Origin: an uncultured bacterium
Lineage (GTDB): Bacteria > Bacillota > Clostridia > Lachnospirales > Lachnospiraceae
Assembly: GCA_947063875.1 (NCBI GenBank)
Contig: CAMSTY010000012.1
Coordinates: forward strand, 1-64,000
DNA length: 64,000 bases
Reading direction: 5' to 3'
The notes under the pieces are model-generated. The model was given only the letters and a program-made list of their open reading frames with translations. It was not told where the DNA came from and ran no database searches. How positions within the stretch are numbered: the stretch's first letter is position 1; the number at the start of each line of letters is the position of its first letter. The position numbers and the translations under genes are program-made. Of this stretch, positions 25,649-64,000 are shown one piece after another.

Positions 25649-25747
25649 GGGGCTTTTAGGGAAGAAACAGGATAGGGCATCATAAAGTTTTGCTGGACAG
25701 ATACCGGCAGCGGTGATAAAATAAAAGAACTGAAACGCAATAAGAGG

Positions 25748-25835
25748 GAGCTCGTGCGGCGGGCTGAGAGGAAGTAATCGAACTTCGACCTTTATTACCT
25801 GATTTGGATAATGCCAACGTAGGGACTTGTGCGAA
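25748..25835 (+). promoter_or_regulatory. TPP riboswitch (THI element) aptamer
   Basis: Conserved CTGAGAGGAAG...ACCTGATTTGGATAATGCCAACGTAGGGA upstream of thiC. Confidence 0.95.
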
Positions 25836-25986
25836 ATGTGATGACCATAAGGCAGAGGGAATGTCAAAAGGGCAGGATGCTTTTTTGAGGGCCAGAAGAG
25901 CCGGCGGGATGTGCCGGCGGCGAGGCTTTGAGAGATCTGCCCGGATGAAACGATCCGATGGAATATTGTCGGAATGAAAAAGTGGG

Positions 25987-37899: not shown

Positions 37900-38210
37900 T
37901 ATACACAAGACTGCGATGAAAAGAAAAAGTAGCGGCCCATAACCTCCACACAGAAAGCAGCCGGAAGATGAGAGGCGCGTGGATGGCGGAACGTGAATAC
38001 ATCTTTGAGCATCACACCGAACAAAGGGGAGTCCTGTCTGGAGGAACCATTTAAGTAGGCTGTGACGGTAAGCCTGCACCCGTTATCGTGCCAGAGCATC
38101 GGTTTTTTGGTGCTTGCTAAGGTAGGCGGTGTGAGCCGCTTATGAAAAAAGGTGGTAACACGAGAATATGCCTCGTCCTTTGGTAGAGATACGAAGGGAC
38201 GAGGTTTTTT
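37900..38210 (+). promoter_or_regulatory. T-box leader upstream of tyrS
   Basis: AAGGTGGTAACACGAG T-box near 38150, candidate UAC specifier in GTGAATACATC at 37998-38000, terminator CCTCGTCCTTTGG...CGAAGGGACGAGGTTTTTT. Confidence 0.92.
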
Positions 38211-60778: not shown

Positions 60779-61468
60779 ATGGAATTGAGATTTCTCGGAA
60801 AAGGCAGCGCGTTCTATCCGGTTTACGGCAATACGGGTGCGTATATGCTTTATGGCAAGGAATTGTATCTGTTGGATTGCGGAGAGTCGGCCTTTGAACG
60901 TCTGTATGGGTTGATCCGCCTGGATGAGATTGAGCGGGTGTATGTGATCCAGACTCACCTTCACGCAGATCATGTGGGGAGTCTGGGAAGCCTGATCTCC
61001 TACTTCCATCATATTTTGGGCAGACAGGTGGTGGTGGTTCATCCTCAGAAGACGATTGTGCAGCTTCTCACCTTAGAGGGAATTGACCCCCGTGGTTATA
61101 TTTATGAGGAAATCCTTCCGGAAAATGCCGCTCGTCTGCATGCTTTGCCGGTGGAGGTCAGACACGCTGCTGATATGAAATGTTATGGCTATATTCTCAG
61201 CGATGAAGGGGAGAGCATTTACTACAGCGGGGATTCCTCTGAACTTCCCCCTCAGATCCGGGAGCAGTTTCTGGAGGGAAAGATTCAGCGGATTTATCAT
61301 GACACGGCGTCCGAGGATCTGCCGAACCCCTCACACTGCTACTATGGGAAGATGGAGCAGTGGATTCCTAAGGAGAAACGGGGGCAGGTGTATTGTATGC
61401 ACTTAGACAGTCCCTGTGAGGAAGTGCTAAAGAGCCGGGGGTTTTCGGTGGTGGAGGTAGTGGGATAG
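60779..61468 (+). CDS. MBL-fold metallo-hydrolase
   Basis: VIQTHLHADHVGSLGSLISYF and YYSGDSSELP. Confidence 0.9.
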   Translation: MELRFLGKGSAFYPVYGNTGAYMLYGKELYLLDCGESAFERLYGLIRLDEIERVYVIQTHLHADHVGSLGSLISYFHHILGRQVVVVHPQKTIVQLLTLEGIDPRGYIYEEILPENAARLHALPVEVRHAADMKCYGYILSDEGESIYYSGDSSELPPQIREQFLEGKIQRIYHDTASEDLPNPSHCYYGKMEQWIPKEKRGQVYCMHLDSPCEEVLKSRGFSVVEVVG

Positions 61469-61602: not shown

Positions 61603-61690
61603 GTTTAAAGGAGGGGCCGGGAATGAAGGGGGGATTCTGTAATTGCGGGTTGATTTACAAGGCTTGTGTGGGCAATAGTGAATAAAAAAT

Positions 61691-61714
61691 TCTCAAAAAG
61701 TGTACTTTTTGAGA
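61691..61714. promoter_or_regulatory. 24-bp palindromic site 1 TCTCAAAAAGT-GT-ACTTTTTGAGA
   Basis: 11-bp perfect arms with central GT. Confidence 0.9.
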
Positions 61715-61817
61715 AGGAAAAATGAAGCCTAAAAACATGTACATCTTACTATATTATCGTCAAAAAATCAAGAAAATTAATCTCTTTTTCTAGTTAATTT
61801 ATACCATGGAATATTTT

Positions 61818-61841
61818 TCTCAAAAAGTACACTTTTTGAGA
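61818..61841. promoter_or_regulatory. 24-bp palindromic site 2 TCTCAAAAAGT-AC-ACTTTTTGAGA
   Basis: 11-bp perfect arms with central AC; whole site is the exact reverse complement of site 1. Confidence 0.9.
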
Positions 61842-61894
61842 ACAAAAACCGACAACACTCCTGCTATTGCTGAAAGACAGAGGAAAACAGAAAC

Positions 61895-63208
61895 ATGCCC
61901 CAAGAGAAGATATGTAAAACCGTCCGTCAGTACAGCAAAGGGCCCGTCTCTCCGGAAGATATGAGAAAGCTTCAGGAAATCGCAGAGGACTGCCGCAAGG
62001 TGAAGAATTATGTCTATGACCGCTTTGGCGGAATCAAAAGCCTGTCCAAGATATATCCGGGCTATACGGTTCAAAATGAGATGACTGCATCAAAACTGCG
62101 TGAGAAGCTGGGACTGCCAAGCGTTTATTTTTATCTGGCTGTTTTTGATGCCCTGGCAGATATCAAAAGTCAGTGGAACCGCACAAAAACGAAGATTCTG
62201 CAGTTAATCGGGGCAAATGAGAACCTGACGCGGGAGGAAAAGCATTATCTTCGCTTCATTCTGAAAGTCAGCAATGCATTTATCGCTGTGCTGAACCAGG
62301 AACCGATAGAATTGACAGAAGACATACGGAAGCGGTATGAGGAAGTGGCGGGAAAACTAGATAAGGAAAAATTGCACCGTTATCTGTGCCGGCAGGTAAG
62401 GAAATATCATGTGAAGCAGCATGCGGAAGCGGTGACAGGCTTTTCTGCGGCAGAACGGGCTTACCGGTATGGCGATCATGGGATTTACCTGTCTACGAAA
62501 CAGAAACGGCAGCGTGTTTTTGTCCCGTTAACAGACAACAACCAGTACAAGAGCCAGCTTTATATCAAGCTGTATCCGGACCAAAACCGCATTGAGATTA
62601 TGGCGCCTGTCTACATGTCCGTGCGCTCCTATGAGGAGTATACCAGCTGCATCGGCGTTTCCATGGGGATGTTCACTATGCTGACAACCAGCGACGGCCG
62701 TTTCTATGGGACGAAACTGGGGGATTATGAGGCCGGATATGCGGAGTGGATACGGGGACAGACCGCAAGCTACAACTGCAACCGGAGGGATAATCCCGGA
62801 AGAAAGAAATACCTCGCAAAAAAGAAGCGGCTGGAGGAACAGCTTCATGGGTATATCAACCATGAGTTAAATCTATTCCTTCAAAACGAGAAACCTCGAA
62901 GGATTTATATGGTAAAGCTTCCCAAACCGGGGAAAGGCGGAAATATCCGAAAGATCAACAATCAGGTGAATATGTGGCAGCGAGGCTATATCCGCAGCCG
63001 CCTGATGCAGAAATGCAAAGAACAGTCCATAGAACTTGAGGAAGTCCTGGGGAAAGATATCAGCAGGGAATGCAGCTGCTGCAAAGCAACAGGAGAGACA
63101 AAGGGAGTTTCCTTTCACTGTGAAAGCTGCGGCTATACTGCGGATAAAAAGGTAAATGCAGCCAGGAATATATTAAAGCGCGGACTGGAAGGAAAGGTTA
63201 TTCATTAA
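61895..63208 (+). CDS. TnpB-like (OrfB zinc-ribbon) protein with apparently substituted RuvC catalytic residues
   Basis: CSCCKATGETKGVSFHCESCGYTADKKVNAARNILKRG zinc ribbon/RuvC-III region; IGVSMGMFTMLTTSDGRFYG at RuvC-I position; RRIYMVKLPKPGKGGNIRKINNQVNMWQRGYIRSRLMQKCKEQSIELEEVLGKDIS. Confidence 0.8.
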   Translation: MPQEKICKTVRQYSKGPVSPEDMRKLQEIAEDCRKVKNYVYDRFGGIKSLSKIYPGYTVQNEMTASKLREKLGLPSVYFYLAVFDALADIKSQWNRTKTKILQLIGANENLTREEKHYLRFILKVSNAFIAVLNQEPIELTEDIRKRYEEVAGKLDKEKLHRYLCRQVRKYHVKQHAEAVTGFSAAERAYRYGDHGIYLSTKQKRQRVFVPLTDNNQYKSQLYIKLYPDQNRIEIMAPVYMSVRSYEEYTSCIGVSMGMFTMLTTSDGRFYGTKLGDYEAGYAEWIRGQTASYNCNRRDNPGRKKYLAKKKRLEEQLHGYINHELNLFLQNEKPRRIYMVKLPKPGKGGNIRKINNQVNMWQRGYIRSRLMQKCKEQSIELEEVLGKDISRECSCCKATGETKGVSFHCESCGYTADKKVNAARNILKRGLEGKVIH

Positions 63209-63445
63209 ATCATAAGAACAGCGGTCTGGATGAATTCCGGCGGTGAGCCGGGGTTTTACCGCAAGGACCAAGCCGCGGGTTCATGATATAAAAACAAAAA
63301 CGGCATTAGAAGGCAGGGAGAGCCTGCGTATTGGGTATGCCAAGACCCTGTGAACACGAAAACTCACAAAGAGCCGTGACGTAGCAGGGAGCGAAGTGGA
63401 TTTCCACATCATCGCTGAGATGACCAATATGCCTTATTTCAAATA
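63209..63445 (+). ncRNA. Candidate structured RNA (possible omega-RNA/guide scaffold and/or leader of the next gene)
   Basis: Stems: ATCAT(AA)GAAC/GTTCATGAT, GCGG/CCGC, CCGGC-GGTGA-GCCGG, GGCAT/ATGCC, GCAGG-GAGAG-CCTGC, CCCTG/CAGGG, GTGGA-TT-TCCAC. No folding software was run. Confidence 0.45.
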
Positions 63446-63519: not shown

Positions 63520-64000
63520 ATGAGGAATATGCACAAGAGGCAGGTTGAGGATTTTATCAAGCTGTTGGAACAAGCCCATCTGGAGATCAAAAAAGCAGTA
63601 AATACACAGGATTACGAGGTGGCTTCGGATCTTCTCGGCCAATGCCAGGAGGGCGCCATCGGCCTGGGAAATCTGATAGAAAAAGAAGAAGGGGAAGGGG
63701 TCGCTGTGATTCCTTTGCTGGAAGCTTATTGCGAACTGGCGTATCAACTGTATGAGGAACTGCAGCAGGGACAGGAAATCAATGAAAACAGGGTGTATAA
63801 AAACCTGCGCAGGTCTCTGATTCAGATAGAAAACAGCGTGAAATTTGACATTAAGTCCCGCCTGGAGATCGTGTTCTTCCCTTATAAGGCCTCTATGTGG
63901 GACAGTCTTGAGAGCGTCTGGATGGCTGCGGATGCCGACCCGGACTGCGATGCCTATGTGGTGCCGATACCCTATTATGAGAGAAATGCAGACGGGACAC
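63520..64000 (+). CDS. CDP-glycerol glycerophosphotransferase-like protein, N-terminal part (continues beyond the window)
   Basis: Frame is open to the window end: MRNMHKRQVEDFIKLLEQAHLEIKKAV...SRLEIVFFPYKASMWDSLESVWMAADADPDCDAYVVPIPYYERNADG. Confidence 0.6.
   Translation, partial: MRNMHKRQVEDFIKLLEQAHLEIKKAVNTQDYEVASDLLGQCQEGAIGLGNLIEKEEGEGVAVIPLLEAYCELAYQLYEELQQGQEINENRVYKNLRRSLIQIENSVKFDIKSRLEIVFFPYKASMWDSLESVWMAADADPDCDAYVVPIPYYERNADGT

What the first reader, a model, noticed from the sequence alone, without database searches (positions are those of the whole stretch)
61895..63208. TnpB-like protein that looks nuclease-dead: candidate domesticated RNA-guided regulator
Seen: the zinc ribbon (CSCC...CESC) and NAARNI motif are intact, but the expected RuvC-I Asp (GIDLG) is Ser (GVSMG), the RuvC-II Glu region (I.IEdL) reads IYMVKLP, and the second Asp of the RuvC-III D-x-D-x-NAA motif is Lys (ADKKVNAA). 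No TnpA or other transposase is adjacent. Established: TnpB/Cas12 need these residues for cleavage, and nuclease-dead TnpB homologues (TldRs) have been described as RNA-guided transcription factors. Inference: this gene may be an independent domesticated lineage acting on a nearby operon such as the sugar ABC genes or the downstream CDP-glycerol-type gene.
Basis: partly seen in the sequence, partly recalled or inferred. Interest (0 to 1): 0.88.

Follow-up and report, generated by a model that had tools for sequence, protein, structure and literature searches.

The report
Phase-variable dead TnpB heading polysaccharide operons
A gut bacterium carries a disarmed gene-cutting protein that, together with a newly recognised structured RNA and a flippable promoter, sits at the head of a sugar-coat gene cluster, as do its relatives in many other bacteria, so it is probably a repurposed switch for changing the cell surface.

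Summary
The ORF at 61895-63208 has the TnpB/Cas12f fold but lacks all three RuvC acidic residues. It is not a one-off ruin: all 31 loci of its family (Lachnospirales) lack the triad, and dN/dS is about 0.04-0.14. (1) Directly downstream lies a conserved structured RNA (core 63300-63438) with strong covariation and a pseudoknot beside its 3' end. It is absent from Rfam. RNA and protein co-occur in 19 of 19 genomes; the other 378 show no credible RNA. (2) Upstream lies an inverton: exact inverted 26-bp sites (61690-61715, 61817-61842) around a promoter that points away from the gene here and towards it in relatives. Other loci carry a tyrosine recombinase gene inside the invertible segment. (3) In 25 of 31 loci the module heads a polysaccharide operon. 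One genome has solo RNA leaders with invertons plus a distant gene, so the protein probably acts in trans. I conclude it is a domesticated, phase-variable RNA-protein regulator of surface polysaccharide. Whether it is TldR-like (RNA-guided DNA binding) or UpxY/LoaP-like (leader-RNA antitermination) is unresolved. The sugar ABC genes are not part of it.

The parts
61690..61715 (+). inverton site 1, TTCTCAAAAAGTGTACTTTTTGAGAA (dif-like: inverted arms around an asymmetric core)
   Evidence: exact reverse complement of site 2
61743..61771 (-). sigma-70-like promoter TTGATT-17-TAAGAT inside the invertible segment, pointing away from the gene in this assembly
   Evidence: sequence; homologous promoter scored in relatives; same segment in the opposite orientation in L132, L026, L131. 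The consensus score alone is not above chance
61817..61842 (-). inverton site 2, exact reverse complement of site 1
61895..63208 (+). nuclease-dead TnpB/Cas12f-like protein, 437 aa
63210..63299 (+). 5' part of the downstream RNA; similar sequence in many relatives, but structure not established
   Evidence: sequences; no consistent helix found
63300..63438 (+). core of the conserved structured RNA (omegaRNA-like operon leader): five hairpin stems and a pseudoknot beside the 3' end
63520..64000 (+). first gene of the downstream surface-glycan operon (852 aa; continues beyond the window to contig position 66078)
   Evidence: homologous genes at related loci

Best explanation
This is a domesticated, nuclease-dead TnpB that forms a regulatory RNA-protein complex for a phase-variable surface-polysaccharide operon. 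A tyrosine recombinase flips a promoter. When the promoter points forward it transcribes the dead-TnpB gene (or, in solo loci, only the RNA), then an omegaRNA-like leader RNA, then the glycan genes. The protein binds the RNA scaffold, whose pseudoknot abuts a short conserved 3' segment (URYCUUAUU...). The mechanism I think most likely is TldR-like: that 3' segment acts as a short guide and the complex binds matching DNA sites in leaders and promoters of polysaccharide operons, so that the operon that is ON dampens others of its class. Shown: dead triad, fold, RNA structure, co-occurrence with the RNA, promoters in both orientations by comparison, operon position. Inferred: RNA binding, DNA targeting, repression, mutual exclusion. 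I hold 'phase-variable polysaccharide-operon regulator of some kind' at about 0.8; the confidence below is for the full statement with its mechanism.
For: All 31 family loci lack the triad under purifying selection. Full TnpB/Cas12f fold. RNA directly 3' of the gene with covariation and a pseudoknot beside its 3' end, the position and layout of TnpB guide RNAs. RNA and protein co-occur in 19 of 19 genomes. Invertons. Operon position in 25 of 31 loci. Solo RNA leaders with invertons in G283. The RNA's 3' motif recurs within 150 nt downstream of the RNA in 5 of 33 loci against none in shuffles, after a different recurring flank that could be a TAM; in G283 all four genome-wide copies lie at family loci and two match another locus's RNA over 11 nt. 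Published TldRs need only 6 nt of guide, and one clade sits behind hin invertons with cross-targeting (PMC13418256).
Against: No convincing target of the window's RNA tail in its own genome. Guide-to-site matches within genomes are not above those between genomes (3 of 40 against 51 of 1049). Echo sites are absent at most loci. The first nine nucleotides after the pseudoknot are conserved across loci, unlike a free guide. RNA always in the leader also fits a cis role. The CM search gives no hit next to the active TnpBs tested.
Confidence: 0.45

Rival explanations
1. The protein is a leader-RNA-dependent elongation or antitermination factor. It binds the nascent omegaRNA-like leader and lets RNA polymerase read through the long glycan operon in cis, as UpxY does in Bacteroides and LoaP in Bacillota; DNA targeting has been lost.
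For: RNA lies in the operon leader wherever the downstream genes could be seen, with no intrinsic terminator before the operon at most loci. Solo leaders plus a distant gene in G283 look like a regulon of cis leaders served by one trans protein. The layout invertible promoter, regulator first, glycan operon is that of Bacteroides capsule loci (PMC12632263). LoaP acts through a leader RNA hairpin (PMC12691694). A conserved RNA 3' end needs no target.
Against: No precedent in the TnpB family that I found. No NusG-type domain. No conserved leader terminator to overcome. Does not explain the echo sites.
Confidence: 0.35
2. A decaying transposon relic: a TnpB that lost catalysis and hitch-hikes in glycan islands without function.
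For: Broken copies exist: a fragment on contig C3 of the own genome, L043 and L133.
Against: Purifying selection, the same three losses in every member, a covarying RNA and a conserved operon position across many genera.
Confidence: 0.04
3. The module serves DNA recombination: the RNA-protein complex directs or regulates the inverton or exchange of glycan cassettes, and the echo sites (L029: GTTATATA-TGCCTTAT-TATATAAC, a perfect inverted repeat) are recombination sites.
For: Tyrosine recombinase genes next to 12 loci. Echo site in L029 is dif-like. L027 and L028, 99.7% identical in the gene, differ mainly inside the inverton and at echo sites.
Against: Many loci have no recombinase nearby and no echo site. 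The inverton sites differ in sequence from the echo sites.
Confidence: 0.08

Closest known systems
TldR (TnpB-like nuclease-dead repressors; Wiegand 2024 cited in PMC13418256), including csrA-tldR loci of gut commensals behind hin invertons
   Same: RuvC-dead TnpB, guide-RNA-like RNA with the gene, domesticated next to surface-structure genes, several diverged loci per genome, invertible promoter nearby, broken gene copies beside surviving RNAs.
   Different: Polysaccharide operons instead of flagellin (two relatives, L037 and L079, do lie near flagellin genes); tyrosine-recombinase invertons that enclose the recombinase gene; RNA as operon leader, also without the gene; conserved rather than variable 3' segment; no demonstrated target.
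UpxY/UpxZ with Mpi invertons at Bacteroides capsule loci
   Same: Invertible promoter, regulator gene first, long glycan operon, several loci per genome (PMC12632263).
   Different: Unrelated protein fold (TnpB, not NusG) and a large structured RNA.
LoaP (NusG paralogue of Bacillota) with its leader RNA hairpin
   Same: Trans protein plus a structured leader RNA upstream of a long biosynthetic operon (PMC12691694).
   Different: Unrelated fold; RNA more than 130 nt with a pseudoknot; antitermination not shown here.
Active TnpB / Cas12f
   Same: Whole fold, zinc ribbon, RNA with pseudoknot 3' of the gene.
   Different: No catalytic residues, no transposon ends or TnpA; RNA model R1 does not hit next to the active TnpB loci tested.

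Membership tests
TldR | TnpB homology over the whole protein | tested here: met
TldR | RuvC acidic triad lost | tested here: met
   31 of 31 family loci, (two are partial sequences that still cover the motifs)
TldR | stable association with non-transposon genes, no transposase | tested here: met
   glycan operons at 25 of 31 loci
TldR | guide-RNA scaffold encoded beside the gene | tested here: met
   structure, position and co-occurrence only; RNA binding itself not testable here
TldR | guide matches a chromosomal target next to a TAM | tested here: inconclusive
   no own-genome target; echo sites and two 11-nt cross matches in G283, not significant overall
TldR | RNA-guided DNA binding and repression | not testable with these tools
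   needs RIP-seq and ChIP-seq
UpxY/LoaP (NusG paralogues) | NusG-type (NGN) domain | tested here: not met
   Pfam finds only Cas12f1-like_TNB above cut-off
UpxY/LoaP (NusG paralogues) | antitermination of the operon it heads | not testable with these tools
   layout similar, activity unknown
Inverton (invertible promoter) | promoter between inverted recombination sites | tested here: met
Inverton (invertible promoter) | segment found in both orientations | tested here: met
   between related loci, L132, L026 and L131 against the window; within one strain not tested
IS200/IS605-type active TnpB | RuvC D-E-D triad | tested here: not met

The most novel reading that the evidence does not exclude
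A TnpB has been converted from an RNA-guided DNA nuclease into a leader-RNA-dependent transcription elongation (antitermination) factor for phase-variable capsule or teichoic-acid operons in Clostridia: a non-NusG counterpart of UpxY whose ancestral guide-RNA scaffold became a cis-acting operon leader.
Probability: 0.32. Interest if true: 0.93.

Novelty: new variant of a known kind. Interest (0 to 1): 0.79.

Why it matters
If right, control by domesticated TnpB extends from flagella to surface polysaccharides in gut Lachnospirales, and is itself under phase-variable control. It gives a testable explanation of how these bacteria switch coats, a parallel to Bacteroides UpxY/UpxZ built from unrelated parts. 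It adds an RNA family missing from Rfam, and a natural separation of protein and RNA (G283) that makes cis and trans roles easy to test.

Tried and rejected
Link to the upstream sugar ABC operon: not conserved in relatives. Own-genome target search with 18-nt and 15-nt stretches of the RNA tail: no excess over control for the first; the second gave 20 against 2 control matches, but the reversed control differs in composition, and none of the four best I looked at carries the CTTATT motif before it or lies at a recognisable polysaccharide promoter. Cross-locus guide-target network: two striking cases in G283 but not significant overall. Intrinsic terminators after the RNA as support for antitermination: none at most loci. 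Rfam, strict and permissive: only a chance hit in the region. Plasmids, phages and viral contigs: no close relative, so not evidently on such a carrier. RNA-only genome G087: a chance hit inside a coding frame. A consistent helix in the 5' RNA part: not found.

Full report
OBSERVATION. It has the TnpB/Cas12f zinc-ribbon domain and, in an AlphaFold2 model built from 15 family members (pLDDT 83), the complete TnpB/Cas12f fold: the best PDB matches are AsCas12f structures, and ISDra2 TnpB 8h1j aligns with TM-score 0.69 by target length. The three RuvC acidic residues are absent. I collected 31 family loci, the window's included, from Lachnospirales genomes, most relatives 44-65% identical to the window protein. 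In every one the RuvC-I Asp is replaced (Ser or Ala in most), the RuvC-II Glu is missing and the RuvC-III Asp is replaced (mostly by Lys or Arg), while the zinc ribbon and the Asn of NAA remain. Pairwise dN/dS is 0.08 and 0.14 for two pairs and 0.04 for a third whose dS is saturated. Catalytic death is therefore a family-wide trait and the protein is maintained by selection.

A CONSERVED STRUCTURED RNA. Immediately 3' of the gene lies a conserved non-coding segment. Fifteen diverse copies align and fold into a common structure: 26 pairs, 16 with changes on both sides. With the pseudoknot added, 91% of pair cells are standard, against at most 43% when partners are slid and 80% in column shuffles, with 63 double-sided cells against 19 in shuffles. 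The pseudoknot joins UAUUGG in an internal loop to CCAAUA just before the RNA's 3' end; it is compensated in L083 and L041 and partly in L085, and L042 looks the same by eye. Its position 3' of the gene, with a pseudoknot next to the 3' end, resembles the omegaRNAs of TnpB (general knowledge). Rfam has nothing like it. Of 397 Lachnospiraceae genomes, 19 have the protein. The RNA is found in 18 of these at strict settings and in the last, G370, with laxer filters. The only other hit, G087, lies inside a coding frame and is chance. Divergent members from other families of the order (L087-L089) keep the RNA.

AN INVERTIBLE PROMOTER. In the window, two 26-bp sites that are exact reverse complements (61690-61715 and 61817-61842) flank a sigma-70-like promoter on the minus strand. 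Equivalent short invertons occur in L026-L029, L034, L035, L077 and the solo loci L130-L132. Comparing the inner segments, L132, L026 and L131 carry it in the opposite orientation to the window (L132: local score 68 reversed against 16 direct), so both orientations exist in the family. In the window the promoter points away from the gene. In nine other loci (L032, L036, L038, L078, L080, L081, L084, L086, L089) the paired sites lie about 1.3-1.5 kb apart and enclose a tyrosine recombinase gene, which itself occurs in both orientations (Phage_integrase). A recombinase of this cluster is upstream in 12 loci. Inversion within one strain was not tested.

POSITION. In 25 of 31 loci the gene and RNA are followed on the same strand by a run of surface-glycan genes (my count): examples tested include glycosyltransferase, DegT aminotransferase, Polysacc_synt_2, LicD, TagD-like cytidylyltransferase and nucleotidyltransferase genes. 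The run usually reaches the end of the fetched stretch. At most loci no intrinsic terminator separates RNA from operon, so the RNA is probably an operon leader. Exceptions: L037 and L079 sit beside or near flagellin genes instead, L041 and L083 follow glycan genes rather than precede them, and L009 and L087 are at contig ends.

NATURAL SEPARATION OF PROTEIN AND RNA. Genome G283 has one intact gene (L033) without an RNA beside it, one broken gene with RNA (L043), and three RNA leaders directly behind an inverton with no gene (L130, L131, L132). Two of these precede recognisable glycan operons; L131 is followed by a nucleotidyltransferase gene as at L029. The simplest reading is that the protein works in trans on, or with, leader RNAs that stay in cis with their operons.

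MECHANISM. Two readings fit. (A) TldR-like: the 3' end of the RNA guides the protein to DNA. For: homology, and the RNA's place and pseudoknot. Published TldRs need as little as 6 nt of guide, and one clade lies behind hin invertons with cross-targeting (PMC13418256). The RNA's conserved 3' motif TATRTRYCTTATT reappears within 150 nt downstream of the RNA in 5 of 33 loci, where shuffles give none, there preceded by a different, recurring flank (AGTWTATR, read by eye), as a target with a TAM would be. In G283 all four genome-wide copies of the motif are at family loci, and L131's RNA matches the L033 site over 11 nt while L132's RNA matches the L131 site over 11 nt. Against: no own-genome target, matches within genomes not significantly above those between genomes (3 of 40 against 51 of 1049), echoes missing at most loci, and a conserved rather than free guide start. 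(B) UpxY/LoaP-like: the protein binds the nascent leader and promotes elongation of the long operon. For: the leader position, likely co-transcription, and the same layout as Bacteroides capsule loci (invertible promoter, UpxY first, glycan operon; PMC12632263). Against: no precedent in the TnpB family that I found, and no direct evidence. I put A at 0.45 and B at 0.35. That the module is a phase-variable polysaccharide-operon regulator of some kind I hold at about 0.8.

NOVELTY. Text searches of 5.4 million open papers found no dead TnpB linked to polysaccharide operons. Subscription papers, including the original TldR paper and a TnpB classification paper, could not be read. The closest published case is TldR, so I file this as a new variant of a known kind. 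It would be categorically new if reading B holds.

Noticed in passing
L009, L027, L029, L131, L132 downstream of the RNA; L033 about 64 nt after the gene: Echo sites: the RNA's 3' motif TATRTRYCTTATT recurs 13-68 nt downstream of the RNA (5 of 33 loci, none expected from shuffles). In L029 it is a perfect inverted repeat, GTTATATA-TGCCTTAT-TATATAAC. Could be a target site, a recombination site or a promoter element.
   Followed up: partly
L090 4487-5668 (G644) and L015 (G136): A second, distinct TnpB-like family of about 395 aa whose RuvC motifs look degenerate by eye. L090 heads a glycosyltransferase operon, and both have a shared but different downstream sequence (GTTGAATA...GTATTCGAAGTTAT).
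   Followed up: partly
L037, L079: Two family members from one genus lie beside or near flagellin genes instead of heading polysaccharide genes, recalling the TldR-flagellin association.
   Followed up: partly
G000:C3:4518-4865 (L031): A 116-aa fragment of the same family elsewhere in the window's genome (66% identical), with no RNA beside it.
   Followed up: partly
window 37907-38183 and 25734-25843: T-box leader and TPP riboswitch, both above Rfam's gathering score.
   Followed up: no
G273:C50 (L159, L166, L168): Three copies of the TATRTRYCTTATT motif within about 8 kb among nucleotidyltransferase and glycan genes; two appear to lie between genes.
   Followed up: partly
window 60779-61468: Metallo-beta-lactamase-fold protein between the ABC genes and the inverton.
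   Followed up: no
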